Below are positions 26,653-58,438 of a DNA stretch of 64,000 bases, piece after piece; the stretch's first letter is position 1; each line of letters starts with the position of its first letter. Both the position numbers and the translations under genes were made by a program. The stretch lies in contig NZ_FOQV01000001.1 in the NCBI RefSeq assembly GCF_900113835.1, positions 682,001 to 746,000 on the forward strand. Direction: 5' to 3'. Source of the stretch: Allobosea sp. OK403 (GTDB taxonomy: Bacteria; Pseudomonadota; Alphaproteobacteria; Rhizobiales; Beijerinckiaceae). The notes under the pieces were generated by a model. The model did not search any database and had not been told where the DNA came from. It saw only the letters and a list, made by a program, of their open reading frames with translations.

Positions 26653-26666
26653 TTGATCCGGCTCAA
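26653..26666 (-). promoter_or_regulatory. FixK/FNR-type box upstream of the yeeE operon
   Basis: TTGATCCGGCTCAA fits TTG(A/C)-N6-(T/G)CAA. The centre lies 60 bp from the start at 26600. The box overlaps the stop codon of ftsH (26663-26665). Confidence 0.7.
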
Positions 26667-28504
26667 GACGCTTTGGCGATAGCCACCCGCGCGCCGTCGC
26701 AGGCTAGAGCCGGAAAATCTGCCGCAGTGATGGTCTCCTGTTTGATCAGCAACTGCGCCCCTGCCTCGAGGTCCGCCCTGCGCCTTGTCAGAATCTGGGT
26801 CGCGTCGTTCAAGGCGGCTGCCACGAGGTCGCGCACGGCCAGGTCGATCTCGCGTTCAGTGGCTTCCGAGGCCGTCGGGCGTTCGGTTCCGCTTGTCGCG
26901 AGAAAAGGGTTCGTTGGCGGAAGGTAGGTCCGGTCTCCGAGCGTGGCGGCCATGCCGTAGCGCGTGACCATATCGAGCGCGAGTTCTGTCGCCCGCTGCA
27001 GGTCGTCGGCAGCTCCTGTCGAGATGTCGCCTGCGAAGACGAGCGCCTCGGCGGCGCGGCCGCCCATCAGGACTGCGAGCTTGTCGCGCAACTCCGCGGT
27101 GGTGAGGAGGAAGCGGTCGCGCGTCGGCCGCTGGATCGTGTAGCCCAGCGCGCCGATGCCGCGGGGAATAATGGAGACCTTCAGCACCGGATCCGCGCCC
27201 GGCACGCTCGCGGCGACCAGCGCATGGCCCACTTCATGGAAGGCCACGCGGCGCTTCTCCTCAGGACTAAGCAGCCGGCCGCGCTTCTCAATGCCGGCGA
27301 CCACCCGTTCCATAGCGGCGGTAAGATCGTCGAGCGTGATCGCAGCGGCCTTGCGGCGCGTCGCGACGATTGCCGCCTCGTTGACGAGGTTGGCGAGATC
27401 GGCCCCGGTGAATCCTGTCGTTATCGCGGCGACCTGGTCGAGATCGAGACCTTCGGCGAGGCGGACCTTCTTGGCGTGGACCTTGAGAATGTCGAGCCGT
27501 CCCTTGCGGTCGGGGCGGTCGACAAGCACCTGCCGGTCGAAACGGCCGGGCCGCAGCAGGGCGGGGTCGAGCACCTCCGGGCGGTTCGTCGCGGCCAGCA
27601 GGATGACGCCGATCGTCGGATCGAAACCGTCGAGTTCCGCCAGCAATTGGTTGACCGTCTGCTCGCGCTCGTCATAGCCGCCAAACGGCGTCGCACCCGC
27701 ACGGCTGCGCCCGAGCGAGTCGAGTTCGTCGATGAAGATGATCGCGGGCGCCGCCTGGCGCGCTTGCTCGAAGAGGTCGCGCACCCGCGCAGCGCCGACG
27801 CCTACGAACATTTCAATGAACTGCGCGCCCGAGATCGAAAAGAAGGCAACACCCGCTTCGCCGGCGACAGCGCGCGCCAGCAGCGTCTTGCCGGTTCCTG
27901 GCGGCCCGACGAGCAGGATGCCCTTCGGCATGCGTGCACCGAGGCGCCCGAATGAGGCCGGATCCTTCAGGAAGGAGATGACCTCCTGCAACTCGAATTT
28001 GGCCTCGTCGACACCCGCGACGTCCTTGAAGGTCACTTTCGTGTCGGTCTCGACGAAGATCTTCGCCTTCGACTTGCCGATCGTCATGATGCCGCCCAAC
28101 CCTTGCCGCTCTGCGACGCGCCGGATGAGGAAGGTCCAGATCAGGTAGAAGGCGAGAGTGGGTAAGACCCAGGACATCAGGCTGGCCAGGAAGGCGCCGG
28201 ATCCAGCGCCACGGATCACGATGTCCTTGCCGGCCAACCGGTCGGCCAGTGCTGGATCGACTCGCTTCGCCGTGAAGAAGCGCCTGCCGTCAGCGGTAGT
28301 CTCCCGGAACGTGCCTGTGATCGTCTCGGCGCCGACCACGACCTCGGCGACCTTGCCGTCCTGGATCAGTTGCTCGAATTGGCTGTAGGGAATGGTCTCG
28401 GTCTGGCGCCATGCCGTCAGCACATCCTGGACCAGCAGGATGCCCATCACCGCCGCGAACACGTACCAGATCAGCCAGTTCGTTTTGGGCGTCGTCTCGG
28501 CCAT
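26663..28504 (-). CDS. ftsH: ATP-dependent zinc metalloprotease FtsH
   Basis: 613 residues. Two membrane segments (about residues 9-30 and 101-127) flank a periplasmic domain. The AAA module has Walker [15 protein letters not shown], Walker [15 protein letters not shown], the pore motif [13 protein letters not shown] and the second region of homology [17 protein letters not shown]. The zinc site is [14 protein letters not shown]. It degrades membrane and regulatory proteins. A FixK-type box centred 62 bp upstream and its place in the stress island suggest a second, hypoxia-induced FtsH rather than the housekeeping copy. Confidence 0.95.
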
Positions 28505-28559
28505 CGCATCGGCTCCTGCTGCAGAGCCCGAATGATGGCCGACCGCGGCTCATCTGCGC

Positions 28560-28573
28560 TTGCGCTGGATCAA
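28560..28573 (-). promoter_or_regulatory. FixK/FNR-type box upstream of ftsH
   Basis: On the + strand it reads TTGCGCTGGATCAA, fitting TTG(A/C)-N6-(T/G)CAA; on the - strand it reads TTGATCCAGCGCAA. The centre lies 62 bp from the ftsH start. Confidence 0.65.
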
Positions 28574-28629
28574 GTCTGGCCCGGGCAACCAGGACCGCAG
28601 GCCGTGCCGCCATGCTGTTCGTATCGTGA

Positions 28630-28994: not shown

Positions 28995-29047
28995 TAGAGC
29001 AGGATCAATGCGAAAAACCGGTGCCCACTTTTTCGCATCCTGCTCTA
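28995..29047. repeat. Intergenic palindromic repeat, type A, copy 2
   Basis: 53-bp palindrome from TAGAGCAGGATC to GATGCG-type right arm ending CCTGCTCTA. Its reverse complement matches the copy at 3284-3339. The TAG stop codon of the alcohol dehydrogenase (29045-29047, minus strand) is the terminal triplet. Confidence 0.85.
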
Positions 29048-30028
29048 CGGAACGAGCACGGCAGCGCCTTGCAGCCTGCCGTCGCGGAGATCGTCGAGAG
29101 CCTCATTCGCCTGTTCAAGCCGATAGGTCTTGGTTGTGGTCCTGATCCCGGCTCGCGGCGCGATTGCGAGGAAATCGAGGCCGTCTTGCCGTGTCAGGTT
29201 CGCAACGGAGAGGAGTTGCCGCTCCTGCCACAGCAACCGGTAGGGGAATTGCGGAATGTCGCTCATATGGATACCGCCGCAAACGACGCGGCCGCCTTTG
29301 CGAACGGCCTTCAGTGCGACGGGGACGAGTGCGCCAACCGGCGCGAAAATGATCGCAGCATCCAGCGGCTCAGGCGGCATTTCGTCCGACGATCCGACCC
29401 AGCAGGCTCCCAGTGACCGCGCCAAGGCCTGGGCGGGCGCGTCGCCGGAGCGCGTGAAAGCGTAGACGTCGCGGCCCTGCCAGCGACAGATCTGGGCGAC
29501 GATGTGGGCGGCTGCACCGAAGCCATAGAGGCCGATCCGGTGCGCCGGCCCTGCGATCTGAAGCGAGCGCCAACCGATCAGCCCAGCGCACATCAGCGGG
29601 GCGGTTGCTATGGCGTCGGAGAACCCATCCAGAGGAAAGGCGAAGGCCGCGTCGGCGAGCATGTGGGTCGCAAAGCCGCCATCGCGCGTGTAGCCGGTGA
29701 AGGTCGGCTCGTCGCATAGGTTCTCATGGCCGCCGGCGCAGTAGCTGCAGTGGCCGCAGGCGCGACCGAGCCAGCCAATCCCGACGCGAGAGCCGATCAG
29801 GCCCGATGATACGCCCGGCCCCACAGCATCGACGATGCCGACCACCTCATGACCCGGTACGATCGGGACTCTGATATCGGGCAGCTCGCCGTCCACGACA
29901 TGAAGATCGGTCCGGCAGACGGCGCAAGCCTCGACATGGATGAGCAGTTCGCCGTTCCCGGGACAGGGGACGGGCCGCGCTTCATAGGCCAGGCGCTCGC
30001 CGACCTTGCGCAGCACCATCGCCTTCAT
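29045..30028 (-). CDS. Zinc-dependent alcohol dehydrogenase
   Basis: 327 residues of the medium-chain dehydrogenase family. It has the catalytic zinc Cys in CAVCRTDLHVVDGE, the GHE motif PIVPGHEVVGIVDAVGPG, the four-Cys structural zinc site CGHCSYCAGGHENLC and a Rossmann segment IGLYGFGAAAHIVAQI. It converts alcohols to aldehydes with NAD(P). Its ATG overlaps the stop of the CBS-BON gene (ATGA at 30025-30028), so the two are translationally coupled and share the FixK-type box at 30866. The substrate is unknown. Confidence 0.9.
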   Translation of the reverse strand: MKAMVLRKVGERLAYEARPVPCPGNGELLIHVEACAVCRTDLHVVDGELPDIRVPIVPGHEVVGIVDAVGPGVSSGLIGSRVGIGWLGRACGHCSYCAGGHENLCDEPTFTGYTRDGGFATHMLADAAFAFPLDGFSDAIATAPLMCAGLIGWRSLQIAGPAHRIGLYGFGAAAHIVAQICRWQGRDVYAFTRSGDAPAQALARSLGACWVGSSDEMPPEPLDAAIIFAPVGALVPVALKAVRKGGRVVCGGIHMSDIPQFPYRLLWQERQLLSVANLTRQDGLDFLAIAPRAGIRTTTKTYRLEQANEALDDLRDGRLQGAAVLVP

Positions 30029-30771
30029 GCGGAAGGCCGTGCAGAGGCGGCGGTCTTAACTTCGCCCATCTCCGAGGGCGTGATCACGACGCCCGACATT
30101 GGCTCTATCCATGCCAGCTGATCCGATATGGATCGCACACCGGCGACATTCTCCGCGACGACATGAGCCGCCTGGCGCTCGCGTTCGTCGAAGATCGCGC
30201 CGCTGAGCTCGACGGCGCCGTGGTCGACATGGACATGGATCATCTGCCCGCCCCAGCTTTGCTTGGCGAGTTCACTCAGAATGTCCGTGCGGATGCGTTC
30301 ATCGTCGACGACGACCGCATCGGCGGTAGGCAGCGCGTCGGCCATCGCGCGCAACAGGTCGGAGCGCGCGACGATGCCGACCAGCTTGCCGTTCTCGACG
30401 ACGGGGAGCCGCTTGATCCGGCGGCGGCTCATCGTCTCCACGACCTCCTCGAGCGTCGCATCCCGGCGGGTCGTCTCGATATTGCTCGACATGACCTCGC
30501 CGACCTTACGGCCATGCGCATGAACATAATCGTCCGCGACTGTGCCGGGTCCGACCAGGAATTCGAGCCACCACGAGCGCTTGCGCTGCGTTCCGAGCTC
30601 GCCGCGCCGCAGGAAATCTCCTTCGCTGACCATGCCGACCAGCGCCCCGTCGCCGGCGACGACGGGCAGGCCGCTGATCCGATGGGCCAGCATCAGGCGG
30701 GCGGCGTCACGGACCGAGGTCGCGGGGGCGACGCTGATCACCGGGGTGGTCATGATGGCTTGGACGAGCAT
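30025..30771 (-). CDS. CBS-pair and BON-domain protein
   Basis: 248 residues from the ATG at 30771, with GGGAG 9 bp upstream; a TTG at 30789 is an alternative. Residues 1-140 are two CBS domains (MTTPVISVAPATSVRDAARL; SSNIETTRRDATLEEVVETM), which bind adenosyl nucleotides. Residues ~155-225 are a BON domain (GQMIHVHVDHGAVELSGAIF), linked to membrane or phospholipid binding. CBS-BON proteins are common in hypoxia and stress regulons of alphaproteobacteria. It overlaps the alcohol dehydrogenase gene. Confidence 0.88.
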   Translation of the reverse strand: MLVQAIMTTPVISVAPATSVRDAARLMLAHRISGLPVVAGDGALVGMVSEGDFLRRGELGTQRKRSWWLEFLVGPGTVADDYVHAHGRKVGEVMSSNIETTRRDATLEEVVETMSRRRIKRLPVVENGKLVGIVARSDLLRAMADALPTADAVVVDDERIRTDILSELAKQSWGGQMIHVHVDHGAVELSGAIFDERERQAAHVVAENVAGVRSISDQLAWIEPMSGVVITPSEMGEVKTAASARPSA

Positions 30772-30865: not shown

Positions 30866-30879
30866 TTGATCGGAGTCAA
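30866..30879 (-). promoter_or_regulatory. FixK/FNR-type box upstream of the CBS-BON gene
   Basis: TTGATCGGAGTCAA, an exact match to TTG(A/C)-N6-(T/G)CAA. The centre lies 101 bp from the ATG at 30771 and 84 bp from the alternative TTG start. Confidence 0.65.
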
Positions 30880-31530: not shown

Positions 31531-32178
31531 TCAGGCCACCAGGAGATGGTCATCGACGGATTTGACACCGGGGGCCGACCATGCGGCGCGTTCCGCGACG
31601 CCGCGCTCATACCAGGCATGGACCTTGCCATCGAGTGTGACGCGGTTGTCGTTGCCGACCGTCACCCGGATCGTGCTCGCCTCAAGCTCGGCGTTGCGCT
31701 TGAGCGCGTCCTCGATCGCCTTCTTCACGTCATTGGCGCTCGCGCGCTGCTTCAGCTCGATCAGATTGCTGACGCCGACGACGCCCGACAGCTTTCGGAT
31801 GGCGTTCTCCGCAGCACGCCGCTGGTACTGCCAATCGACGGTGCCCGACAGCTGCACCCAACCCTTCTCGACCTTGACCTTCACGGCATCGGGCACCGTG
31901 ACATCCCAGGCGATGATGCTGAGCGCGCGCTGGGCGATTTCGGTGTCGCTGGTCTTCTTGTCGTGCGGGTAGCGCACTTCGATCTCTTCCGCGATGGCGC
32001 GTACGCCCTTGACGCGACGGACGGCCTTCTCGGCGGCGATCTTCTCGGCGTAGCTCTGGACGTGTCCGGTCAGCGTCACCACGCCGTCTTCCACCGCGAC
32101 GCCGATATGGGCGGCCTCGATGCTCGGTTCGAAATCGAGTTCGTCGATGATCGTCAGTCGCAACTGCTTGTCAGTCAT
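31531..32178 (-). CDS. Protein with three BON domains
   Basis: 215 residues from the ATG at 32178, with GGAG 7 bp upstream. Three BON repeats can be seen: GVAVEDGVVTLTGHVQSYAE, VKVEKGWVQLSGTVDWQYQR and VTVGNDNRVTLDGKVHAWYE. No signal peptide is visible, so it is probably cytoplasmic or peripheral. BON proteins of this OsmY-like kind are induced by osmotic or hypoxic stress. A perfect FixK-type box lies at 32315-32328. Confidence 0.88.
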   Translation of the reverse strand: MTDKQLRLTIIDELDFEPSIEAAHIGVAVEDGVVTLTGHVQSYAEKIAAEKAVRRVKGVRAIAEEIEVRYPHDKKTSDTEIAQRALSIIAWDVTVPDAVKVKVEKGWVQLSGTVDWQYQRRAAENAIRKLSGVVGVSNLIELKQRASANDVKKAIEDALKRNAELEASTIRVTVGNDNRVTLDGKVHAWYERGVAERAAWSAPGVKSVDDHLLVA

Positions 32179-32314: not shown

Positions 32315-32328
32315 TTGATCGGCGTCAA
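32315..32328 (-). promoter_or_regulatory. FixK/FNR-type box upstream of the BON gene
   Basis: TTGATCGGCGTCAA, an exact match to TTG(A/C)-N6-(T/G)CAA, centred about 143 bp from the BON start. This is the largest distance in the set, so the transcript would have a long leader. It could also serve the Hsp20 remnant on the other side. Confidence 0.6.
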
Positions 32329-32769: not shown

Positions 32770-33222
32770 TCACCCGCCGAAATGCCGCTCGATCTCCGGG
32801 ATGGGCAGCTTGGTCAGATCCTTGCCAATCTCGGCCACGACGAGGGCTTGTACAGGCGGCGTCAGGCAGCGCCTGAGTTCTCCCAGCAGCTTCGGCGGCG
32901 CGACCAGCACGAGTTTCAAGACGGCTTGTCCACGGACGGATTTTTCGACCATCGCGGAGACGTCCTTCACAAAGGACAGCTGCTCGGCGAGATGCAGATC
33001 CGGCTCCTCGACGGCGCTGCGAGCTGACCCGTGCGACTGGTGCACGCGACCCGGACGATCCCGTCCGAGTTCATGCGAGGGTGGCGAGCGATGCTGCATC
33101 GCTTCGACCAGTTCGAGCTGCGGCGCCTGTTCATTGCCGATGTTGCGCAGGATCAGCGCCTTGGCTCCGTCGAAGACGACGAGCCAGCTCTTGTGAGGGA
33201 GGCGAACTGGATGGGTCGACAT
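32770..33222 (-). CDS. Host-attachment family protein
   Basis: 150 residues from the ATG at 33222 (MSTHPVRLPHKSWLVVFDGA). It matches the family annotated as protein required for attachment to host cells (PF10116 as I recall): SWLVVFDGAKALILRN at the start and a C-terminal KLVLVAPPKLLGELRRCL. The fold is related to eRF1-like domains. The name comes from an Agrobacterium attachment mutant, and the biochemical role is unclear. It is divergent from the MgtC/DUF4010 gene. Confidence 0.8.
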   Translation of the reverse strand: MSTHPVRLPHKSWLVVFDGAKALILRNIGNEQAPQLELVEAMQHRSPPSHELGRDRPGRVHQSHGSARSAVEEPDLHLAEQLSFVKDVSAMVEKSVRGQAVLKLVLVAPPKLLGELRRCLTPPVQALVVAEIGKDLTKLPIPEIERHFGG

Positions 33223-33300: not shown

Positions 33301-33314
33301 TTGATGCGGCTCAA
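33301..33314 (+). promoter_or_regulatory. FixK/FNR-type box upstream of the MgtC/DUF4010 gene
   Basis: TTGATGCGGCTCAA, an exact match to the consensus, centred 51 bp from the GTG start (57 bp from the alternative ATG). It also lies about 85 bp upstream of the divergent host-attachment gene. Confidence 0.65.
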
Positions 33315-33358: not shown

Positions 33359-34621
33359 GTGACGATGACGGAGGATGTCTATTTCAGGTTCGGCGTTGCG
33401 CTTGCGATCGGTCTCGTGATCGGGATCGAACGTGGCTGGCGCGACCGCGACGGCCCGCCTGGCAGCCGAACGGCCGGGATTCGAACCTTTGCGCTGGCGG
33501 GGTTGCTCGGGGCGGTCAGCGCGACAGTCGCCAGGGACATGGCCGCGCCTTTCGTCTTCATCGCATTGCTGATTGCGTTCACGAGCGTTTTCGCCTGGTT
33601 CAAGGTCCGCGAAGCCGATGAAGACAATGATTTCAGCGTCACTTCGGTCGTCGCGGCTCTGCTCGTTTTTGTCCTGGGCGCCTATTGCGTGGTTGGTTCT
33701 CCTCAAACGGCGGCGGCGGCGGGCGTCGCTGCGGCGGGCCTCCTCGCCAGTCGCGATTTTCTCCACGGGGCGCTTGCGCGTCTGACCTGGCCCGAATTGC
33801 GATCGGCCCTGCTCCTGCTGGCGATGTCGGTGATCGTCCTGCCGATCCTCCCCAACACGGCGATTGATCCGTTCGGCAGCGTCAATCCGCGCGAGGTCTG
33901 GATTTTTACGGTCCTCGCCGGAGCGATTTCCTATTTCGGCTACATCGCTGTGCGCCTGTTGGGCGCGTCCCGTGGTTTGCTCGTCACCAGCGCGGCGGGA
34001 GCGCTGGTGTCTTCGACCGCCGTTACTGTCCTGCTCGCGCGCCGGGCCGGGGAAGGGGAGGCAACAGCCAGGCTTGCCGGAGCTGCCGCCCTCGCCGGCA
34101 TGATTTCTATCCTGCGGGTCCTGGTGCTCGTGGCGGCTGTTGCTCCGGCTGTTCTGGTCCATGCCGGTCCGGCTGCTTTGGCAGGTGCGGGGGCGTTCGG
34201 AATGGCTTCATTGCTCTTGCTCCGCTCGTCCGGGCAGGAGCTCGACGGCAAGGCACCGCCCCTGACCAACCCGTTCGACTTGCAGCCTTTGCTCGCCTTC
34301 GCCGTCACGTTGACGCTGGTCCTGTTACTGGTCGGATGGTTGACTAGCCTGATCAGCCAGCAGGGGCTGTTTCTCTCTTCCGGTCTCGTGGGCCTCGTCG
34401 ATGTCGATGTCGCCGCTCTGACTGCGGCGCGAAACGTCGAGGCGCTCGGTGGCCCGCGTCGAGCTGCGATCGCGATCCTTCTGGCGCTCGCTGTCAATGC
34501 GGTCGCGAGAGTCGGCTACGCCATGATCACGGGGCCGCTGGCGTTTTCAGCCTGGCTCCTGCTGATAACGGGGGCGGCATTCGGTTGCGGACTATCGATC
34601 CTTGCCATACTCGCGCTCTGA
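33359..34621 (+). CDS. MgtC/SapB plus DUF4010 membrane protein
   Basis: 420 residues from a GTG at 33359 with AGAGG 7 bp upstream; ATG 33365 is an alternative. Residues 1-140 are an MgtC/SapB domain (RFGVALAIGLVIGIERGW; GIRTFALAGLLGAVSATVA). The rest is a DUF4010 region with many helices (ILRVLVLVAAVAPAVLVHAG; LLAFAVTLTLVLLLVGWLTS). MgtC proteins are linked to growth at low magnesium and to control of ATP synthase or phosphate. The next gene, convergent, is an MgtA-type ATPase, and both have FixK boxes. Confidence 0.85.
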   Translation: MTMTEDVYFRFGVALAIGLVIGIERGWRDRDGPPGSRTAGIRTFALAGLLGAVSATVARDMAAPFVFIALLIAFTSVFAWFKVREADEDNDFSVTSVVAALLVFVLGAYCVVGSPQTAAAAGVAAAGLLASRDFLHGALARLTWPELRSALLLLAMSVIVLPILPNTAIDPFGSVNPREVWIFTVLAGAISYFGYIAVRLLGASRGLLVTSAAGALVSSTAVTVLLARRAGEGEATARLAGAAALAGMISILRVLVLVAAVAPAVLVHAGPAALAGAGAFGMASLLLLRSSGQELDGKAPPLTNPFDLQPLLAFAVTLTLVLLLVGWLTSLISQQGLFLSSGLVGLVDVDVAALTAARNVEALGGPRRAAIAILLALAVNAVARVGYAMITGPLAFSAWLLLITGAAFGCGLSILAILAL

Positions 34622-34711: not shown

Positions 34712-37369
34712 TTACGCTGTCGGGCGTTTGCCAGAGTGTCTGGTACGCTGAATCGCTGGGGCATGTTCGATAGCGCGTGCGTGAGCGAGCTGGCCAGCGG
34801 GCGCATGGGATTTTGACCTCATCGCGAAGCGCTTCAGGATCTCTGCCGCGGCGAGATAGCTCAGGCTGATGCCGGTGATCGCGGCGAGGATCGGTAGCGG
34901 CAATGCGGCGAAACCGATGAAGCCACCGAGTGGCGTCAAGGCCAGGATAAGCGCGACGGCAAGCGCGCCGAGCGATGTTGCCGCGAGCACGGGATGGGGG
35001 CGGCTCGTCCAGAGCGGCCTCGCGGTCCGGATGATGAAGATCACGAGAATCTGGGTCGCGATCGACTCGACAAACCAGGCTGTCCGGAACACGGCGACAT
35101 CAGCGCCGAACCCCCAGCGCAGCAGAACGAAGGTCGCGATATCGAAGAGGGACGAGAGCGGCCCCATCACGAGAGTGAAGCGCAGCACCGATTTCATGTC
35201 CCAGACTTGCGGTGTCGCAAGCGTCTCCTCGTCGGCGCTGTCGAAGGGAATGCCGATCTCGGAGAGGTCATAGAGCAGGTTGTTGAGCAGGATCTGCAGC
35301 GGTGCCAACGGCAGGAAAGGCAACACCAGCGAGGCGAGCGCCATCGACAGCATGTTGCCGAAATTGGAACTCGTGCCCATGCGGACGTATTTCATGATGT
35401 TGGCGTAGGTACGCCGGCCTTCCGCCACCCCCGTGGCGAGAACGCCCAGATCGGGGGCGAGCAGGATGATGTCGGCGGCCTCGCGGCCGACATCGGTGCC
35501 GCCCTCGACTGACAAGCCGACATCGGCTGCATGGATTGCCGGTGCATCGTTGATGCCATCGCCGATGAAGCCGACCGTATGACCGCGCCGGCGCAACGCC
35601 CTCACGATCCGGCTCTTCTGGTCGGGCGAGACGCGCACGAAGAGGTCGGTCTTGCCCACACGTGCCGCGAGCGCCGCCTCGGAGAGACGAGAAATATCTT
35701 CGCCTGTCATCAGGCCGCGTGTCGGAAGGCCGAGCGTCTCGACCAGGTGCTGAACGACAGGCGCAGCGTCGCCGGAGATGATCTTGACGCATATGCCGGC
35801 CTTGACGAGCCGGGCCACAGCCTCTGTCGCCGACGCCTTGGGCGGATCAAGGAAGGCCGCGCAGCCGATGAAGACGAGACCAGCCTCGTCGGAGAGGCCA
35901 ACCTGCCGGCAGTCGGCCCGCATCCTCCGCCTTGCGACCGCGAGCAGGCGGAAGCCCTGCCTACCCTTGTCGTCCAGTAGCACTGCGATCCGGGCGCGCT
36001 GCGCCTCATCGAGCGCGGAGACGGCGCCGTCGGGCGCCTCGACATGCGTGCACAGGCTTAGCACTGCCTCCGGCGCGCCCTTGGTGACGAGCGCGCGCTC
36101 CCCATCGTGCGAGACCAGGACCGAGGCACGACGCCGTTCGAAGTCGAAGGGCAGGTCGTCGATATGCGCCCAACCGTCCTCATCGGCCGCCGGCGCGCCC
36201 GCCAGGATCGCATCGTCGAGATTGCTGCGCATGCCGCTGGCAAATCGGCTGTTGAGGCGGATGAATTGGGCAGCACGCGCGCTGTCGCGGCCATCGGCTC
36301 CGAAGCTGCCGATATGGACGATCTTCGCCTCGGTCAGCGTGCCGGTCTTGTCGGTACAGAGCACATCCATGGCGCCGAGGTCATGGATGGCCGAGAGACG
36401 TTTCACCACGACTTTGCTGGCCGCCATGCGCACTGCGCCGCGCGCGAGGGTGACCGTCATGACCATAGGCAAGAGCTCGGGAGTCAGGCCGACCGCCAGC
36501 GCCACAGCGAACAGGAAGCTCTCCAGCGACAGGCCGTGATGGATGAGCTGGGTCAGGAGGACGAAGAGGACGAGGAAGCCGGTCAGCCGTAGGATCAGCA
36601 TGCCGAGCGCATGGACGCCGCGCTCGAAGGCGGTCGGCGGTTCCTTGGCCAGCACCGAGGCCGAGATGGCGCCGAAGCGGGTCGCCGCGCCTGTGGCGGC
36701 CACCAGCATGAGCGCTTCGCCACCGACCATGCTGGTGCCGCCGAACAGAGCGTTGAAGGCGTCGGAGGGAGAAGAGCCCGAGGCCGGACCCGGCCGCTTC
36801 TCGACCGGATAAGGCTCGCCGGTCAGGATGGCTTCATTGGCGAGCGCGCCGTGGCCCGACAGCACGATGCCGTCAGCTGGTACCAGGTCACCGGCGCGCA
36901 ATTCCACGACATCGCCCGGTACGATGTCCTTGACCGGCAACTCCTCGACCTTGCCGTCCCGGCGTACGGAGGCTGTCACGGCGACCGAACGCTTCAGAGC
37001 CTCGACGGCACTCTCGGCCTTCTGCTCCTGAGCGAGGTCGAGCCCGATGGAGAAGAAGACGATGATCAGGATGATGACGAAGCTCTGCCAGTCTCCCGTG
37101 GCGCCTGAAATGCCCGCCGCAATGAGCAGGATGGCGATCAGTGGCTCGGAGAGCCGCTTGGCGAGCTTTGCAATGAGACTGCGGTGAAGGCCCACGACCG
37201 CGCGGTTCGGGCCGTAATGGTCCAGTCGGTCGCGTGCCTCCGCCGAGGTCAGCCCCTCCGGTCGGGCGTCGAGCATCCGCAGGCTGTCGTTGTTGCTCGC
37301 GGTCCAGAAAGCTGGTTGCTCGCCCTTGCGGGCCAGCGCTGCCGTTGCAGCATCGATCGCTCCATTCAT
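34712..37369 (-). CDS. mgtA: Magnesium-translocating P-type ATPase
   Basis: 885 residues, close to the usual ~900 of MgtA/MgtB. P-type motifs are all present: ANEAILTGEPYPVEKR, the phosphorylation site VLCTDKTGTLTEAK, GDGINDAPAIHAADVGLSVE, and the P3B-type C-terminal helices (PLQILLNNLLYDLSEIGIPF). The transmembrane sequence PTELLPMVMTVTLARGAVRM-like near residue 300 supports the Mg2+ subfamily. It imports Mg2+ into the cytoplasm. A FixK-type box 77 bp upstream points to control by oxygen rather than only by magnesium. Confidence 0.92.
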   Translation of the reverse strand: MNGAIDAATAALARKGEQPAFWTASNNDSLRMLDARPEGLTSAEARDRLDHYGPNRAVVGLHRSLIAKLAKRLSEPLIAILLIAAGISGATGDWQSFVIILIIVFFSIGLDLAQEQKAESAVEALKRSVAVTASVRRDGKVEELPVKDIVPGDVVELRAGDLVPADGIVLSGHGALANEAILTGEPYPVEKRPGPASGSSPSDAFNALFGGTSMVGGEALMLVAATGAATRFGAISASVLAKEPPTAFERGVHALGMLILRLTGFLVLFVLLTQLIHHGLSLESFLFAVALAVGLTPELLPMVMTVTLARGAVRMAASKVVVKRLSAIHDLGAMDVLCTDKTGTLTEAKIVHIGSFGADGRDSARAAQFIRLNSRFASGMRSNLDDAILAGAPAADEDGWAHIDDLPFDFERRRASVLVSHDGERALVTKGAPEAVLSLCTHVEAPDGAVSALDEAQRARIAVLLDDKGRQGFRLLAVARRRMRADCRQVGLSDEAGLVFIGCAAFLDPPKASATEAVARLVKAGICVKIISGDAAPVVQHLVETLGLPTRGLMTGEDISRLSEAALAARVGKTDLFVRVSPDQKSRIVRALRRRGHTVGFIGDGINDAPAIHAADVGLSVEGGTDVGREAADIILLAPDLGVLATGVAEGRRTYANIMKYVRMGTSSNFGNMLSMALASLVLPFLPLAPLQILLNNLLYDLSEIGIPFDSADEETLATPQVWDMKSVLRFTLVMGPLSSLFDIATFVLLRWGFGADVAVFRTAWFVESIATQILVIFIIRTARPLWTSRPHPVLAATSLGALAVALILALTPLGGFIGFAALPLPILAAITGISLSYLAAAEILKRFAMRSKSHAPAGQLAHARAIEHAPAIQRTRHSGKRPTA

Positions 37370-37439: not shown

Positions 37440-37453
37440 TTGATCCAGGGCAA
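37440..37453 (-). promoter_or_regulatory. FixK/FNR-type box upstream of mgtA
   Basis: TTGATCCAGGGCAA fits TTG(A/C)-N6-(T/G)CAA with the GCAA variant. The centre lies 77 bp from the mgtA start. Confidence 0.6.
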
Positions 37454-39544: not shown

Positions 39545-39558
39545 TTGATCTCGCTCAA
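39545..39558 (+). promoter_or_regulatory. FixK/FNR-type box upstream of the beta-CASP gene
   Basis: TTGATCTCGCTCAA, an exact match, centred 62 bp from the ATG at 39614. The identical 14-mer occurs upstream of adhP at 43728. Confidence 0.7.
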
Positions 39559-42129: not shown

Positions 42130-43650
<1,521 letters not shown>

Positions 43651-43727: not shown

Positions 43728-43741
43728 TTGATCTCGCTCAA
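43728..43741 (+). promoter_or_regulatory. FixK/FNR-type box between aldehyde and alcohol dehydrogenase genes
   Basis: TTGATCTCGCTCAA, an exact match to the consensus. The centre lies 60 bp from the adhP ATG and 84 bp from the divergent aldehyde dehydrogenase start, so it may serve both directions. Confidence 0.7.
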
Positions 43742-46171: not shown

Positions 46172-46308
46172 GTTCGAGCTTCAAGGCCATAGGCCATTCC
46201 TGCCTGTTACAATCCGTCACGTCATCGCACCGATTGTGACGCTGGCATCGTCTCGCCGTGACGGGAGTGACGTCAATTCTCTGCATCGACAGGCAAAGAG
46301 AGACGCTC
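46172..46308. promoter_or_regulatory. Divergent promoter region with GTGAC/GTCAC repeats
   Basis: Between the response regulator and the FixK-type gene lie an inverted pair CGTCAC and GTGACG about 15 bp apart, then two more GTGAC copies before the FixK-type start. They could be sites for the response regulator. No FixK-type box is seen here, so autoregulation through such a box is not evident. Confidence 0.3.
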
Positions 46309-49102: not shown

Positions 49103-50278
49103 TTAGCCGATGGCGCGGCAGACATGGCGTGCGATCGTCAGTTCCTCATCGGTGCCGAGAACCAGCACTTCAATGCGGCTGTCATCGCGGGATATCCGTT
49201 GCTTGCCTTCCAGATTGGCCTTGTCCTCGAAGCATAGGCCCAGCCATTCCAGGCGCCGGGATGTAAGAGCCCTGATCTGATGGGCGTGCTCTCCAATTCC
49301 GCCGGTGAAGACGAGGCGATCGAGCCCGCCCAGCGTATTGGCCATTGCCGCGATCTCACGGGTCAGCCGGAATACGAAGAGATCAATCGCTTCAGCGGCA
49401 TGCGGGTCTTGGCTCGCGAGCAGCGTTCGCATGTCACCGGAGATGCCGGAGACGCCAAGCAGGCCCGATTGGCGATAAAGCAGATCTTCCAGTTCCACGA
49501 CCGAGAGACCCTCGACCTGTTGAAGATAGAGCAGGACGCCGGGATCGAGCGCGCCGCAGCGCGTGCCCATGACGAGGCCATCGAGCGCCGAGAAGCCCAT
49601 TGTCGTATCGAGGCTCTTGCCATCTCGCATGGCGCACAGGCTCGCACCATTGCCGAGATGGGCCACCACTGTCCGCTTGCCGGTCTCCTCAGGCGCGATC
49701 TCGGTAAGGAGCCTTGCGATGAACTCATACGACAGCCCGTGAAAGCCGTAGCGCCGTATGCCTTTCTCCTCCAAGGCGCGTGGAATTGCGAAGCGGCTGA
49801 CCGGCGATGTCAGGCCATGGTGAAAGGCGGTGTCGAAGCAGCCGAATTGCGGCAAGTCGGGGCGCAGGCGTGCGAGCGCCCGTACTGGCGCGAGGCTGCG
49901 CGGCTGATGCAATGGCGCGAGCGATGTTAGGGCGGTCAGCGCTGCGATCGCGCGCTCATCCAGCCGGCAGGTTTCGAAGTACTCGCGGCCACCATGGACG
50001 ATCCGATGGCCGGCCGCGACCAAGCGATCCTTGCCGAGATGGGCTTCGATCCAGCCAAGCAACTCACCGAGCAGATCGTCCTGCTCGGCTCGTTGCGAGC
50101 CCCAGCGACGATCGGCGAGGCTTTGGCCGGCTGCATTCCTGGCGACGAGACGAGGCGAACCGTCATTCTCCTCGATCTCGCCGCGCACCAAAAGTGAGGG
50201 GTTGCCGGAAGCAATCTCAAACAGGCTGAACTTGATGCTCGAAGAGCCTGCATTCAACGCAAGGATCGCATCCGTCAT
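49103..50278 (-). CDS. ackA: Acetate kinase
   Basis: 391 residues. ASKHA-fold motifs: ILALNAGSSSIKFSLFEI at the N-terminus, VAAGHRIVHGGREYFETC, AHLGNGASLCAMRDGKSLDT, MGFSALDGLVMGTRCGALDP and the C-terminal GGLDRLVFTGGIGEHAHQIR. It converts acetyl phosphate and ADP to acetate and ATP. It lies 22 bp after the phosphoketolase gene, which produces acetyl phosphate, so the pair gives one ATP per cleavage without oxygen. Confidence 0.96.
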   Translation of the reverse strand: MTDAILALNAGSSSIKFSLFEIASGNPSLLVRGEIEENDGSPRLVARNAAGQSLADRRWGSQRAEQDDLLGELLGWIEAHLGKDRLVAAGHRIVHGGREYFETCRLDERAIAALTALTSLAPLHQPRSLAPVRALARLRPDLPQFGCFDTAFHHGLTSPVSRFAIPRALEEKGIRRYGFHGLSYEFIARLLTEIAPEETGKRTVVAHLGNGASLCAMRDGKSLDTTMGFSALDGLVMGTRCGALDPGVLLYLQQVEGLSVVELEDLLYRQSGLLGVSGISGDMRTLLASQDPHAAEAIDLFVFRLTREIAAMANTLGGLDRLVFTGGIGEHAHQIRALTSRRLEWLGLCFEDKANLEGKQRISRDDSRIEVLVLGTDEELTIARHVCRAIG

Positions 50279-50300
50279 GGCTTCGCCCTACCGAGAAGGG

Positions 50301-52694
50301 TCATGGAATGCCCGCGGCAGATGCATCGTGCGGCCAGCGCCAATCGCGAATCTCCGGCATGTCCTCACCATATGCGCGGATATAGGCCGCATGGGCGATC
50401 AGCTGGTCGCGGAAGCATTGACGCGCGCGTGAGCCATCGGAGCCGAGCTCCGGGAGCCGGTCGATCACGGCGATGGCGAGATGGAAGCGGTCGAGTTCGT
50501 TCAGCACCAGCATATCGAACGGAGTCGTGGTGGTGCCTTCCTCCTGATAACCGTGGACATGCATGCCGGCATGGTTGCCTCGATCATAGGTCAGCCGGTG
50601 GATCAGCTGCGGGTAGCCGTGAAAGGCGAAGATCGCCGGCCGATCCCGCGTGAACACGGCGTCGAAATCCCGGTCGCTCAGCCCATGAGGGTGCTGTTTG
50701 TGGCTCTGCAGCGTCATCAGGTCGACTACGTTGACGACGCGGATGGTGATTTGGGGCATTGCCGCCCGCAGCAATGCGACGGCGGCGAGGGTCTCGATCG
50801 TGGGCACATCGCCAGCGCAAGCCATGACAACGTCGGGCTCCGAGCCCGTCTTCTCGTTGCCGGCCCACTCCCAGATGCCGATTCCCGCGGCACAATGGAT
50901 CGCCGCGGCCTCGCTGTTCAGCCATTGCGGCGCCGGAGCCTTGCCGGCGACGATGACATTGATGCGATCATAGGTGCGCAGGCAGTGATCCGTGACCCAG
51001 AGCAGGGTGTTGGCATCCGGCGGCAGATAGATTCTGCCAATATCTGCCTTCTTGTTGGCAATGAGATCGAGGAAGCCCGGGTCCTGGTGGCTGAAGCCGT
51101 TATGATCCTGCTGCCAGACATGCGAGGTCAGGAGATAGTTCAGCGAAGCAATCGGCTGACGCCACGGGATTCCGCGCGAGACCTTCAACCATTTGGCGTG
51201 CTGATTCACCATCGAATCGACGATGTGGATAAAGGCCTCGTAGCAGGAGAATAAGCCGTGGCGGCCGGTGAGCAGGTAGCCCTCGAGCCAGCCCTGGCAA
51301 AGGTGTTCGCTCAGCACCTCCATGACCCGGCCATCCCGGGCGAGATGGACGTCATAGGGCTCTATCGGCTCCATCCAGACGCGTTCTGTAACATCGAACA
51401 CCGCGTCAAGGCGGTTTGAGGCTGTCTCGTCGGGACCCATGATGCGGAAATTGCGTGCTGGCGCGTTCAGCACCGCGACGTCTTTAAGATAGGCGCCCAT
51501 AACTCGCGTCGCCTCTGCGACGAGGCCGCCAGGGCAGGGCAGTTCGAGGCTGTAATTGCGATAATCCGGCAATTTCAAACTGCGTTTGAGCAGACCGCCA
51601 TTGGCGTGCGGGTTGGCGCCCATGCGGCGCGTCCCCGACGGCGCCAGCGCTCGCAGCTCTGAGCGCAGCTCGCCAGCCTCGTCGAACAGCGTCTCGGGCT
51701 CATAGCTCCGCATCCACTCTTCGAGCAGCTTGAGATGGGCGGCGTTGCCGCGCGCGTCGGTAATCGGCACCTGGTGAGACCGCCAGAAGCCCTCGACCTT
51801 CTTGCCATCGACGAATTTCGGTCCGGTCCAGCCCTTTGGGCTGCGCAGCACGATCATTGGCCAGCGCGGGCGTTCGTCGATGCGTCCAGCGTCGCGAGCC
51901 TCTGTCTGGATGGCATGGATGCGGTCGAACACCGTGTCCAGCGTGCCCGCCATGAGCTGGTGCATCACCTCCGGTTCGCTGCCTTCGACGAAGAAGGGCT
52001 CGTAGCCATAGCCCATGAGCAGGTTGCGCAGCTCTTCGGGCGGCATCCGGGCCAGCATCGTCGGATTGGCGATCTTGTAGCCATTGAGGTGCAGGATCGG
52101 CAGGACAGCGCCGTCATGGACCGGATTGAGGAATTTATTGGAATGCCAGGAGGCGGCGAGCGGCCCGGTCTCGGCCTCACCGTCGCCGATGACGCAAGCA
52201 ACGATCAGGTCCGGGTTGTCGAGCGCGGCGCCGAAGGCGTGAACCAGCGCATACCCCAGCTCGCCGCCCTCATGGATCGAGCCTGGCGTCTCGGGCGCAG
52301 CATGGCTCGGAATCCCGCCAGGAAACGAGAACTGCCGGAAGAGCTTGTGCAGTCCTTCCGCATCGCGGGAGATATCGGGATAGGTCTCGCTATAGGAGCC
52401 TTCGAGATAGGTGTTGGCGACCATGCCGGGGCCGCCATGCCCGGGGCCGCAGACATAGATCATGTCGAGATCGCGTGCCGCGATCATTCGGTTCAGATGC
52501 GCATAGATGAAGTTGAGGCCCGGCGTCGTGCCCCAGTGGCCGAGGAGGCGCGGCTTGACGTGCTCAGGCCGGAGCGGTTCGCGAAGCAGAGGATTGTCGA
52601 GCAGATAGATCTGGCCGACCGAGAGATAGTTCGCGGCGCTCCAATAGCGATGGATGAGGCTTAGCTCGTCTCGGCTCATGGGGTCGGCGATCAT
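50301..52694 (-). CDS. xfp: Xylulose-5-phosphate/fructose-6-phosphate phosphoketolase
   Basis: 797 residues, the normal length. Family segments: [57 protein letters not shown], the thiamine-diphosphate motif [20 protein letters not shown], and [17 protein letters not shown]. It splits xylulose-5-phosphate or fructose-6-phosphate with phosphate to acetyl phosphate and glyceraldehyde- or erythrose-phosphate. GAGGAG precedes the ATG. A near-consensus FixK box is centred 63 bp upstream. Confidence 0.97.
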
Positions 52695-52750: not shown

Positions 52751-52764
52751 CTGATCTAGCGCAA
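52751..52764 (-). promoter_or_regulatory. Near-consensus FixK/FNR-type box upstream of xfp
   Basis: CTGATCTAGCGCAA matches TTG(A/C)-N6-(T/G)CAA except for the first base. The centre lies 63 bp from the xfp start, the preferred spacing in this window. Confidence 0.5.
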
Positions 52765-53111: not shown

Positions 53112-53129
53112 TTCGATCTCGACAGGCCG

Positions 53130-56114: not shown

Positions 56115-56186
56115 GGGTTTTCCTTGTGTCAGAAATGGCTTCCCACGCGTCAGAATTGGCTTTCCAGCCAGAGCTGGCTTTGCCCG

Positions 56187-57599
56187 TCAGAACATGTGGA
56201 AAGGCGGCTTGGCGTCGTCCGGCAGGAGCGGCTTATAGGGTGTCCGGACAAGGCGCTCCGCGAAGTCGGCCTTGGCCTTTTCCAGCAATCCCGGTTCGAC
56301 GAGCACATCTGCGGCAACGCCCGCCATGACCTTGGCAACGTGAACCATGCCCTTATGCGCCAGCGGCGATTGGCCATGGGCCGTCAGCTGCCAGGAATGC
56401 CCGGGTGTGCCGATCGTATAGGTCGCGCCACGCGCCTGGACCGTGGGGACGGCCCAGGAGACATCGCCGACATCGGTCGAACCCATCATCCGCGGCCCCG
56501 GCACCTCCCGGGGGGCGATCGCGTTGCACAGGGGAAAATCCGTCACCGGCAAGCCCGAGCGGCGAAATGCGCTTTCGATATGCGCGGGCGTCACGGTCTT
56601 CTGCATACGCCTGGCGAAGGCGACGTCGTCTGCGTCGAAAGGGGGCGGGCCGAGCCGATCGAAGTTGCGCTGCATCGCATCTTCCAGCGGCGTGTTCGCC
56701 AGCAGGCTGCTCATCGCGCTGACGATTTCGCTGGTGACGGTCGTCTCGGTCATCAGCGCCGCGCCTTCGGCGATTTTCCGGACGCGGGCGATGAGCTCAT
56801 GGACCTGGGAGACCATCGTCGCGCGCACGACATAGCGCAGCCTGGCCTTGGCCTGCACGACGTTGGGCGCGATGCCGCCGGCATCGAGATAGGCATAGTG
56901 AATGCGGGCGTCCGAGGGCATGTGCTCGCGCATATAGTTGACGCCGACATTCATCAGCTCGGCGGCATCGAGCGCCGAACGGCCGAGATGCGGCGCGGCG
57001 GCGGCATGCGAGGCGCGGCCGGAGAACTCGAAATCGAGCGTCGTGTTGGCCAGGGATATAGCTGCCGTCACCGCCGCGAAATCGGCCGGATGCCAGGAAA
57101 TGGCGATGTCGACATCCTTGAAGGCACCGTCCTTGACCATGAACGCTTTGCCTGCCCCGCCTTCTTCGGCCGGGCAGCCATAATATCGGACGCGGCCCTT
57201 GAGCCCACGCTCCGCGAGGAAATCCTTGACCGCCGCGGCCGCCAGCATGGCGCCGGCGCCCAGCAGGTTGTGGCCGCAGCCATGGCCGGCCGGCTGGTTG
57301 GGAAGCGGCTGATGCTCGGACACGCCAGGAGCCTGCGACAGCTCCGGCAGCGCGTCGTACTCCCCGAGGATGGCGATCACCGGCCCGTCTTCTCCCGCTT
57401 CGCCCATGACGGCGGTCGGCAATCCGGCAATGCCCGTCTCCACGCGAAATCCCTCGCGCCGAAGCTGCTCGGCGTGGGCGGCAGCCGATTTGACCTCCCG
57501 GTAGTTGAGCTCGGGCATCTCAAAGACGCGGTCGCTCAGCTCGATATAGTCCGCCTGCTTTGCATCGACGATCGTCCAAATCCTATCGGTATTCTGCAC
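56187..57599 (-). CDS. M20-family amidohydrolase (AbgB-like)
   Basis: 470 residues. Motifs: ILGEYDALPELSQAPGV, AGHGCGHNLLGAGAMLAAAA, YYGCPAEEGGAGKAFMVKDG, SHAAAAPHLGRSALDAAELM and a C-terminal GSTDVGDVSWAVP with APGHSWQLT-like end. The arrangement resembles AbgB, one subunit of p-aminobenzoyl-glutamate hydrolase, but no abgA partner is nearby. Indole- or aryl-acyl-amide cleavage is also possible. It differs in subgroup from the M20 gene at 10774. Confidence 0.9.
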   Translation of the reverse strand: MQNTDRIWTIVDAKQADYIELSDRVFEMPELNYREVKSAAAHAEQLRREGFRVETGIAGLPTAVMGEAGEDGPVIAILGEYDALPELSQAPGVSEHQPLPNQPAGHGCGHNLLGAGAMLAAAAVKDFLAERGLKGRVRYYGCPAEEGGAGKAFMVKDGAFKDVDIAISWHPADFAAVTAAISLANTTLDFEFSGRASHAAAAPHLGRSALDAAELMNVGVNYMREHMPSDARIHYAYLDAGGIAPNVVQAKARLRYVVRATMVSQVHELIARVRKIAEGAALMTETTVTSEIVSAMSSLLANTPLEDAMQRNFDRLGPPPFDADDVAFARRMQKTVTPAHIESAFRRSGLPVTDFPLCNAIAPREVPGPRMMGSTDVGDVSWAVPTVQARGATYTIGTPGHSWQLTAHGQSPLAHKGMVHVAKVMAGVAADVLVEPGLLEKAKADFAERLVRTPYKPLLPDDAKPPFHMF

Positions 57600-57818
57600 A
57601 GCCTTCTCCCGAGATTGCGTTCGCGCCCATAGCCGCCGCTCTTGCCGCCATCATCCGCAATAACTCGGCGTCGGCAGCCCCAGCTGCGAGAGGCTACTAC
57701 AAGGCGGATGGCAGAATGGCTGAATTTTGCTCCGAAGAATCGGCGATTATTGCAGGCTCGACCTTTGCCTGTGCCCTCCGAAATTTGGGTTATCGGGTCC
57801 CGTGTCCCGGCAAGTGGT

Positions 57819-58109
57819 GTAGCTGAGGCCCGGCAGCGCTGCCGCGTCCACTTCATGCGCAACGCCCTGGTTCATGTCATCCTTGGCGAACGGTGCGTTG
57901 TCTCCGCTTTCATCGCCACGGCCTTCGCCTAGAAGGACGCCGCTGCCAGCCTGCGATGGCGCAGGGTCTCCGACCAGCTCGGGCCGACCGTCCCCAAGCG
58001 CGCCGCCCTCATTGAGAAATCCAAGATTGACGTGCTCGCCTACATGATCTTACCGACGCAGCATCGCGCCATGCTGCTCAGCCCTAGAGGACACGACCTG
58101 AACTGCTGA
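57819..58109 (+). pseudogene. IS256/mutator-family transposase remnant
   Basis: The frame reads QRCRVHFMRNALVHV, then VVSAFIATAFA, an in-frame TAG at 57930-57932 where a Gln codon is expected, and continues SLRWRRVSDQLGPTVPK and DVLAYMILPTQHRAMLLS. This is a well-known stretch of IS256-family transposases. The N-terminal half and the C-terminal end (after HRAMLLS) are missing. No terminal inverted repeats are seen. Confidence 0.8.
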
Positions 58110-58438
58110 TCTTGGGAAAATGCGTAGCTGAAATGTATGATTTATGGCGTCGAAATCATTCATGCAGCAATACATTCTTAGAAAATACTATTCTCGTATC
58201 GCAGTAAGGCTGCATCTGAGAGATTTTAAAATACGTCAGATCGGCGATGACAGCTAACTCGGATATTCAGCAAATTGTTATCGAGTGGCGACTGAGTGGC
58301 GATCTATATCGATATCTCAAGACCGTTCTGTTTGATCGAAATCAATCTCCGTTTGGCAGTTCGTAAATTGCCCCACCAGTTATGAATTGATCAATGTCCC
58401 AAGCGCAGCATCGCGCGTGTCCTTAGGAGGGACGAAAC
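58110..58438. other. AT-rich intergenic stretch
   Basis: About 330 bp, visibly lower in GC than the rest, with several AT-rich runs between the transposase remnant and the small 60-residue gene. I see no gene in it. It ends with the FixK/FNR-type box at 58332 and a strong AGGAGG site. The composition suggests foreign or decayed DNA. Confidence 0.5.
58332..58345 (+). promoter_or_regulatory. Perfect FNR/FixK palindrome upstream of the 60-residue gene
   Basis: TTGATCGAAATCAA is a full match to both the FNR consensus TTGAT-N4-ATCAA and the FixK box. The centre lies about 101 bp from the start at 58439. Confidence 0.7.

What the first reader, a model, noticed from the sequence alone, without database searches (positions are those of the whole stretch)
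26653..58345. Candidate oxygen-responsive FixK regulon spread over about 32 kb
Eight exact and three or four near matches to TTG(A/C)-N6-(T/G)CAA lie upstream of genes in this interval: 26653, 28560, 30866, 32315, 33301, 37440, 39545, 43728 and 58332, with near matches at 28630, 39403 and 52751. Six are centred 51-63 bp from the start codon, the usual class II activator distance. The same interval encodes a FixK-type activator and an oxygen-sensor-like kinase. By eye I did not find such boxes before genes in 1-24 kb.
Basis: partly seen in the sequence, partly recalled or inferred. Interest (0 to 1): 0.78.

Follow-up and report, generated by a model that had tools for sequence, protein, structure and literature searches.

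The report
Low-oxygen gene island with own sensor
A roughly 33-kb stretch of a soil bacterium's genome carries its own oxygen-sensing switch and about ten matching control sites in front of survival genes, so it probably turns on as a block when oxygen runs low; the parts are known, but they are packed together unusually neatly here.

Summary
The observation largely holds. All nine listed exact boxes exist (12 in the window, shuffle mean 3.1, maximum 8). The interval is the genome's densest stretch for TTGATN5TCAA: 7 of 60 sites, next best 5. With the starts I chose, 10 of 10 strict boxes from 20 kb on are intergenic; six, plus near match 52751, lie 57-64 bp from a start. Of 12 alignable boxes, 11 are identical at all ten motif positions in relative G060, 2.8 expected. 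One claim fails: a conserved box also precedes an export operon at 20180.

hFixL, FxkR and FixK match those of Rhizobium plasmid pRL9 at 63%, 67% and 61%. An FxkR operator (K-box) lies between fxkR and fixK here and in 17 of 17 close loci with that pair. Three rhizobial plasmids have similar islands with 15-19 boxes. Against: most genus relatives examined carry the regulators with few boxes.

Unproven: expression, and which of three FNR-type activators binds. A GNAT-fold protein (44955-45425) accompanies the module. Verdict: new member of a known kind.

The parts
45431..46171 (-). OmpR/PhoB-type response regulator, FxkR orthologue
   Evidence: NCBIfam OmpR-family hits, the best below their own cut-offs; 67% identical to FxkR9 of pRL9; divergent from fixK in 20 of 21 loci examined
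46206..46221 (+). K-box-like operator GTTACAATCCGTCACG between fxkR and fixK
   Evidence: Only hit with at most 2 mismatches in the 64-kb window; hits with up to 3 mismatches are not in excess (5 against 6.1). At most 2 mismatches in 18 of 18 close loci, the window included; the same scan recovers the pRL9 K-boxes
46309..47067 (+). FixK, Crp/Fnr activator without Fe-S cysteines (ATG start; a longer GTG start is possible)
   Evidence: PDB best hit FixK2 4i2o; E-xx-SR recognition helix invariant in 6 sequences; falls with FixK9a/9b
47025..49031 (+). hFixL, hybrid haem-PAS histidine kinase with C-terminal receiver domain
   Evidence: Pfam PAS, HisKA, HATPase, Response_reg; FixL PAS chains in PDB; H217, R237, D595 invariant in 4 sequences; 63% identical to hFixL9
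44955..45425 (+). 156-aa uncharacterised GNAT-fold protein that accompanies the module
   Evidence: No NCBIfam hit at 0.001 and only a sub-cut-off Pfam hit; AlphaFold pLDDT 76.9; top Foldseek hits are GNAT acetyltransferases; present in 15 of 19 distinct loci examined
43795..44868 (+). AdhP-type alcohol dehydrogenase; box 43728 at 60.5 bp
   Evidence: NCBIfam AdhP above cut-off; box before it in G060, G096, G068, G086, G067 and on pRL9
43728..43741 (.). FixK/FNR box TTGATCTCGCTCAA, between adhP (60.5 bp) and the aldehyde dehydrogenase gene (84.5 bp)
42130..43650 (-). aldehyde dehydrogenase (ExaC-like)
   Evidence: just below the ExaC cut-off
41475..42116 (-). nitroreductase-family protein; no strict box of its own
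   Evidence: BluB/FbiB-type hits below cut-off
39614..41227 (+). beta-CASP metallo-beta-lactamase-fold protein
   Evidence: box before its gene in 9 of the 11 genomes (of 61 searched) that have it, and in S. fredii and S. meliloti
39545..39558 (.). box TTGATCTCGCTCAA, 62.5 bp before the MBL gene
38475..39368 (-). helix-hairpin-helix (PolX N-terminal-like) protein; near-match box 39403 at 41.5 bp
37440..37453 (.). box TTGATCCAGGGCAA, 77.5 bp before the Mg ATPase gene; not conserved in G060
34712..37369 (-). magnesium-translocating P-type ATPase (type IIIB)
   Evidence: NCBIfam TIGR01524 above cut-off
33365..34621 (+). MgtC/DUF4010 membrane protein; box 33301 at 57.5 bp
33301..33314 (.). box TTGATGCGGCTCAA between the Host_attach and MgtC genes
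32770..33222 (-). Host_attach / baeRF family protein
32315..32328 (.). box TTGATCGGCGTCAA before the triple-BON gene (143.5 bp to the preferred ATG)
31531..32178 (-). triple BON-domain protein
30866..30879 (.). box TTGATCGGAGTCAA, 101.5 bp before the CBS-BON gene
29045..30771 (-). CBS-BON protein and overlapping Zn alcohol dehydrogenase, probable operon
28560..28573 (.). box TTGCGCTGGATCAA, 62.5 bp before ftsH (near match 28630 beside it)
26663..28504 (-). FtsH-family protease
   Evidence: NCBIfam TIGR01241 above cut-off
26653..26666 (.). box TTGATCCGGCTCAA, 59.5 bp before a YeeE/YedE-type gene (26046-26600)
49103..52694 (-). phosphoketolase (xfp) and acetate kinase, probable operon
   Evidence: NCBIfam above cut-off
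52751..52764 (.). near-match box CTGATCTAGCGCAA, 63.5 bp before xfp, conserved in G060
58332..58345 (.). perfect palindrome TTGATCGAAATCAA, 100.5 bp before a 60-aa ORF (58439-58621); no matching DNA in the G060 stretch

Best explanation
This is a self-contained low-oxygen persistence island. Inferred chain: when O2 leaves the haem-PAS domain, the hybrid kinase hFixL signals to FxkR; FxkR binds the K-box at 46206 and switches on the fixK-hfixL transcription unit; FixK binds TTGAT-N4-ATCAA boxes, most often about 60 bp before the start codon, and activates fermentation and redox genes (phosphoketolase-acetate kinase, alcohol and aldehyde dehydrogenases), protein and RNA housekeeping genes (FtsH, beta-CASP, baeRF/Host_attach), ion transport (Mg ATPase, MgtC) and CBS/BON proteins, plus an export operon at 20.2 kb. 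Shown from sequence: the regulators' kinship, the K-box, and the boxes with their spacing and conservation. Inferred: O2 response, binding, activation, and that this FixK rather than FnrN or FixK2 is the main activator.
For: Box excess and clustering. Intergenic position of 10 of 10 strict boxes in the window from 20 kb on, 13 of 15 in S. fredii and 16 of 17 in S. meliloti, with coding fractions 0.82-0.89 (window starts chosen by me). Spacing peak at 57-74 bp. Conservation of 11 of 12 boxes against 2.8 expected. Regulators 61-67% identical to the experimentally studied pRL9 set (PMC7888657 passages), with K-boxes. FixL haem-PAS residues kept. Box-rich islands around the same module on three rhizobial plasmids and in G060. 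In B. diazoefficiens, xfp/ackA, MBL, Host_attach, nitroreductase and CBS genes are listed 10- to 95-fold lower in a fixK2 deletion, each with a box at the gene or at the head of its operon (PMC9104804 table passages).
Against: No expression or binding data for this genome. FnrN and FixK2 are encoded elsewhere and could read the same boxes; G011 and G088 have boxes before MBL without an island-type FixK at E 1e-60. In 40 kb (35 kb in G096) around FixK, seven genus relatives have only 1-3 strict boxes (G096 3, G083 1, G068 2, G086 2, G077 1, G067 3) or 6 (G071), not the full island; three family members have 5 in 120 kb. Boxes 37440 and 58332 lack conservation support. Xfp has a strong box in only 4 of 16 genomes. 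The match of window genes to Bradyrhizobium genes rests on family names, not on an alignment made here.
Confidence: 0.75

Rival explanations
1. The boxes are real and respond to low oxygen, but the genome's core regulators (the cysteine-bearing FnrN or FixLJ-controlled FixK2 at C11:1.14-1.16 Mb) do most of the work; the island FixK is redundant or fine-tunes.
For: One search shows FixL, FixJ, FixK2, a cysteine-rich FnrN, hemN and a cbb3 oxidase cluster in the same genome (named by reading translations and by tblastn). FNR and FixK motifs are virtually identical (PMC2908626 passages). G011 and G088 have MBL boxes without an island FixK at E 1e-60; a more distant FixK in them was not excluded.
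Against: The island FixK co-occurs with MBL (8 of 11, P 2.5e-4) and Xfp (9 of 16, P 1.5e-3) among 61 genomes, phylogeny not controlled. The module sits inside box-rich islands on three rhizobial plasmids, in the window and in G060; but in seven other genus relatives it does not.
Confidence: 0.17
2. The FixK island answers a signal other than oxygen (for example NO, redox or another ligand of the PAS kinase).
For: Haem-PAS domains can bind other gases (recalled). No biochemical data.
Against: The haem-ligand His and the distal Arg of FixL are conserved (residue roles recalled). The close pRL9 system responds to 1% O2 (PMC7888657 abstract).
Confidence: 0.06
3. Chance: the boxes are a by-product of local composition.
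For: The loose pattern is expected 3 times per window.
Against: 0 strict hits in the reversed sequence, 0 of 100 shuffles reach 12, intergenic bias and conservation.
Confidence: 0.02

Closest known systems
hFixL-FxkR-FixK cascade of Rhizobium etli and R. leguminosarum (pRL9 clusters of Rlv3841)
   Same: Hybrid haem-PAS kinase, OmpR-type FxkR divergent from fixK, K-box between them, box-preceded adhP beside fxkR (PMC7888657 passages)
   Different: On pRL9 the regulators are linked to fixNOQP, fixGHIS and hemN; here they sit among stress and fermentation genes, in a genus probably outside Rhizobiaceae. PMC4999443 (passages) places the origin of the cascade in the ancestor of Rhizobiaceae.
Bradyrhizobium FixK2 regulon
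   Same: Overlapping target families (xfp-ackA, MBL, Host_attach, nitroreductase, CBS) with boxes of the same form (PMC9104804 table passages)
   Different: There the locus tags are spread over the chromosome and FixK2 is driven by FixLJ (PMC9104804 abstract start); FixK2 carries a redox-active cysteine (PMC2908626 passage)
lxa (low-oxygen-activated) locus of Burkholderia cenocepacia
   Same: A contiguous low-oxygen block with BON, nitro/flavin-reductase, Zn-ADH and MBL proteins (PMC6127331 table passages)
   Different: Has six universal stress proteins; a different class of bacteria; the suggested regulator BCAM0049 (Anr-like) lies outside the locus
Plasmid islands of Sinorhizobium fredii pSF45436d and S. 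meliloti LMB1 pB
   Same: Same hyp156-FxkR-FixK-hFixL module, same order, 15 and 17 strict boxes, MBL, BON, P-type ATPases, and Host_attach or CBS/Xfp
   Different: Carry USPs and, in one or both, Hsp20, GroEL, ArgF, PpsA and a trypsin-like protease that were not found among the window proteins scanned; no AdhP hit in their 40 kb

Membership tests
hFixL-FxkR-FixK cascade | Kinase with FixL-type haem-PAS and a C-terminal receiver domain | tested here: met
   Pfam architecture; H217, R237, D595 invariant in 4 sequences; 63% to hFixL9
hFixL-FxkR-FixK cascade | OmpR-type FxkR, not a FixJ | tested here: met
   OmpR-family hits, sub-cut-off for each named equivalog shown; 67% to FxkR9, 31% to own FixJ over the receiver part only
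hFixL-FxkR-FixK cascade | K-box GTTACA-N4-GTTACA upstream of fixK | tested here: met
   46206-46221 with 2 mismatches of 12; 21 loci examined, one without an adjacent pair; at most 2 mismatches in 20 of 20 pairs, 18 of them reached by at most 2 of 200 mononucleotide shuffles, the two distant ones by 8 and 3
hFixL-FxkR-FixK cascade | O2-dependent phosphorelay and fixK induction | not testable with these tools
   needs biochemistry and expression data
FixK (Crp/Fnr, not Fnr) | No N-terminal Fe-S cysteine cluster; FNR-type recognition helix E-xx-SR | tested here: met
   Sequence and alignment of 6; own FnrN has the cysteines
FixK regulon | Boxes at activator spacing before targets, conserved among relatives | tested here: met
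FixK regulon | Targets bound and activated by this FixK | not testable with these tools
   needs binding and mutant expression data
lxa locus of Burkholderia | Block of universal stress proteins | tested here: not met
   No USP hit among the window proteins scanned (the smallest ORFs only against NCBIfam); so it works like lxa but is not filed as one
GNAT acetyltransferase (44955-45425) | GNAT fold | tested here: met
   Predicted topology and Foldseek, best E 1.9e-6, TMq 0.48-0.72 in the 50 rows shown; a prediction from 4 sequences
GNAT acetyltransferase (44955-45425) | Acetyl-CoA motif R/Q-x-x-G-x-G/A | tested here: inconclusive
   The motif place reads D-E-A-G-V-A; D94 is invariant in 7 sequences, G97 in 4 of 4 but not in the L034 row; motif recalled; may be inactive or atypical

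The most novel reading that the evidence does not exclude
The hFixL-FxkR-FixK cascade has a fourth, unrecognised member: the small GNAT-fold protein at 44955-45425. FixK switches it on (a box precedes it, or the adhP gene in front of it, in 11 of 15 distinct loci that have it), and it feeds back on the cascade, for example by acetylating or binding FxkR, FixK or hFixL, in the place that FixT holds in the FixLJ system. A distant homologue sits between hemN and fnrN in the same genome, so this would be a general companion of Fnr/FixK regulators. The whole unit would move between genomes as a portable low-oxygen programme.
Probability: 0.2. Interest if true: 0.65.

Novelty: new member of a known kind. 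Interest (0 to 1): 0.45.

Why it matters
It shows the hFixL-FxkR-FixK cascade, described from Rhizobiaceae in the papers seen here, in a genus that is probably of another family, packaged with its likely targets in one accessory island (island-type FixK at E 1e-60 in 15 of 61 genomes of the genus). One regulator knock-out would test the whole block. It also links three known low-oxygen programmes (FixK2 regulon, lxa, rhizobial plasmid clusters) by shared gene content and offers a testable new component, the GNAT-fold protein.

Tried and rejected
Chance origin of the box cluster: rejected. Classical FixLJ control of this fixK: set aside, because the neighbouring regulator is OmpR-type and the site is a K-box; FixLJ-FixK2 is elsewhere. 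FixT homology of the 156-aa protein: not supported; FixT is a receiver domain (PMC7078487 passages), this is a predicted GNAT fold. Membership in lxa: rejected for lack of USPs. A phosphoketolase promoter box as a general feature of the genus: rejected, 4 of 16. tRNA genes and Rfam families that could mark an island edge: none found in the window. The co-occurrence P values do not control for phylogeny. My first count of boxes before MBL and Xfp did not turn minus-strand loci and was replaced. The K-box control used mononucleotide shuffles, and in G060 and G037 the best-scoring hit reported was an overlapping or opposite-strand reading of the site. 'Intergenic' in the window depends on start codons that I chose; boxes 26653, 32315 and 39545 lie within longer mechanical ORFs. 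Rows dropped: two hFixL sequences (L033, L034) whose translated stretch held a stop were left out of the kinase alignment. The FixK tree had an unsettled bootstrap and several long branches. The GNAT profile hit on the fnrN neighbour is 25 bits in a search of 12 sequences and weak in pairwise BLAST. In one search, boxes about 1 kb or more from hyp156 without an adhP between (R. jaguaris, G038) were not counted.

Full report
What was claimed.

Check of the boxes. All nine exact sites are there, with one more inside the interval (35207, inside the Mg ATPase gene) and two outside it (19041, 20180); 12 in all against a shuffle mean of 3.1 and maximum of 8. A stricter scan, intact TTG and CAA and at least 9 of 10 motif positions, gives 10 hits in the window and none in the reversed sequence. 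In the whole genome (6.64 Mb, 24 contigs) TTGATN5TCAA occurs 82 times by strand, 6 for the control pattern. This is 60 distinct sites; 7 fall in the interval, and no stretch of that length elsewhere has more than 5. The two other clusters are C3:31-49 kb and C11:1.15-1.18 Mb; the stretch next to and overlapping the latter holds the genome's core FixL, FixJ, FixK2, FnrN, hemN and a cbb3 oxidase cluster, named by tblastn and by reading the translations.

Position. With starts that I chose by reading frame, Shine-Dalgarno match and domain limits, all 10 strict boxes from 20 kb onward are intergenic, although about 82% of the 20-59 kb stretch is coding. Distances from box centre to start codon: HlyD 61.5, YeeE 59.5, FtsH 62.5, MgtC 57.5, MBL 62.5, AdhP 60.5, phosphoketolase (near match) 63.5; others are 77.5 (Mg ATPase), 84.5 (aldehyde dehydrogenase), 85.5 (Host_attach), 100.5 (60-aa ORF), 101.5 (CBS-BON) and 143.5 (BON).

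Conservation. The closest of the 61 genus genomes searched (G060, FixK 92% identical) has a largely colinear island, with the window's 53-59 kb not matched. Of 13 boxes examined, 12 had a matching stretch and 58332 had none. Of the 12 (nine exact or strict sites and the three near matches), 11 are identical at all ten motif positions; neighbouring 14-mers would give 2.8. 37440 is the exception.

Regulators. The kinase at 47.0 kb has PAS, HisKA, HATPase and receiver domains; after a histidine-kinase domain entry, its best PDB hits are FixL PAS chains, and the His and Arg aligned with the haem-binding positions of FixL (roles recalled) are invariant in four homologues. The activator at 46.3 kb is nearest to FixK2 in the PDB, has no N-terminal cysteine cluster and keeps E-xx-SR. 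The response regulator at 45.4 kb is OmpR-type. Compared with plasmid pRL9 of R. johnstonii 3841, where the cascade has been studied (PMC7888657, passages), FxkR is 67%, FixK9b 61%, hFixL9 63% and AdhP 78% identical. In a tree of 25 proteins the window's FixK falls with FixK9a/9b and the other island-type FixKs, apart from its own genome's FixK2 and FnrN (95/98, bootstrap not settled).

K-box. GTTACAATCCGTCACG at 46206 is the only hit with at most two mismatches in the window; hits with up to three are not in excess. In 21 loci examined one had no adjacent fxkR-fixK pair; the other 20 all had a match with at most two mismatches of 12. In 18 of them (the window and 17 close relatives) at most 2 of 200 shuffles did as well; in the two distant ones 8 and 3. 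The same scan recovers the pRL9 K-boxes.

Relatives. On plasmids of S. fredii, S. meliloti and R. jaguaris the same regulators lie in 40-kb stretches with 15, 17 and 19 strict boxes against 1, 0 and 0 in reversed sequence. In S. fredii and S. meliloti 13 of 15 and 16 of 17 are intergenic; the spacing peaks near 57-74 bp over the three sets taken together. Against a fixed island: G060 has 20 strict boxes in 88 kb, but seven other genus genomes keep the regulators with 3, 1, 2, 2, 1, 3 and 6 strict boxes in 35-40 kb, and three family members (G059, G037, G038) with 5 in 120 kb. So the module also occurs without a box-rich island. In the genus, island-type FixK is found in 15 of 61 genomes, the MBL gene in 11 and phosphoketolase in 16, at the thresholds used; 8 of 11 and 9 of 16 overlap with FixK. 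The MBL gene has a box in 9 of 11, two of them (G011, G088) without island-type FixK; phosphoketolase has one in 4 of 16. The genus is probably Bosea: contigs of the named B. vaviloviae SD260 and of a Bosea MAG have the same lengths (129,384 and 127,396 bp) as contigs of unnamed genus members G096 and G086. NCBI now lists B. vaviloviae as Allobosea in Alloboseaceae.

Known biology. Table passages of PMC9104804 list B. diazoefficiens phosphoketolase, acetate kinase, MBL, host attachment, nitroreductase and CBS genes as 10- to 95-fold lower in a fixK2 deletion, with a box at the gene or its operon. PMC6515984 table passages list several of them among proteins and genes that differ in its microoxia comparison (column heads not seen). 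PMC6127331 table passages show BON, nitro/flavin-reductase, Zn-ADH and MBL proteins in the B. cenocepacia lxa locus. The match is by family name. In searches for Bosea with FixK/FixL and for hFixL/FxkR with Bosea or Beijerinckiaceae (open-access library only, the 8 and 5 rows listed of 95 and 416) no listed paper held both Bosea and these regulators.

The small companion. The 156-aa protein beside fxkR has no family hit above a cut-off. Its model (pLDDT 76.9) has a GNAT-like order of strands and helices and GNAT enzymes as top structural matches. It is present in 15 of 19 distinct loci examined, and a box stands before it, or before the adhP in front of it, in 11 of these 15; in R. jaguaris, G037, G038 and E. 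sesbaniae none stands close. A distant homologue lies between hemN and fnrN in the same genome. Its acetyl-CoA loop is atypical, so catalysis is open.

Conclusion. The finding is a real, conserved, probably FixK-driven low-oxygen island. What is not shown is expression and which FNR-type activator dominates.

Noticed in passing
window 44955-45425: Conserved unannotated GNAT-fold protein beside fxkR; distant homologue between hemN and fnrN in the same genome (L040:11193-11762, reverse strand).
   Followed up: partly
window 58439-58621: 60-aa ORF with a 6-of-6 Shine-Dalgarno match, 100 bp after a perfect FixK palindrome; no homologue sought.
   Followed up: no
window 13933-18075: 1380-aa trimeric autotransporter (YadA head, stalk and anchor repeats).
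   Followed up: no
window 52890-55964: Segment not colinear with G060: a C-terminal fragment resembling RpiB (52890-53111) and a UvrD-type helicase with small ORFs before it.
   Followed up: no
window 46222-46231: A GCAC element follows the K-box after five bases; the same in 12 of the 16 close loci whose reported hit was in register and after one pRL9 K-box; possibly an extended operator.
   Followed up: partly
L033:20001-21884 and L034:2847-4661 (reverse): The matched hFixL stretch holds one in-frame stop in each; real break or alignment edge not decided.
   Followed up: no
L040:6540-6968 (reverse): Single receiver-domain protein between FixK2 and FixJ in the core oxygen locus, FixT-like by position.
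   Followed up: no
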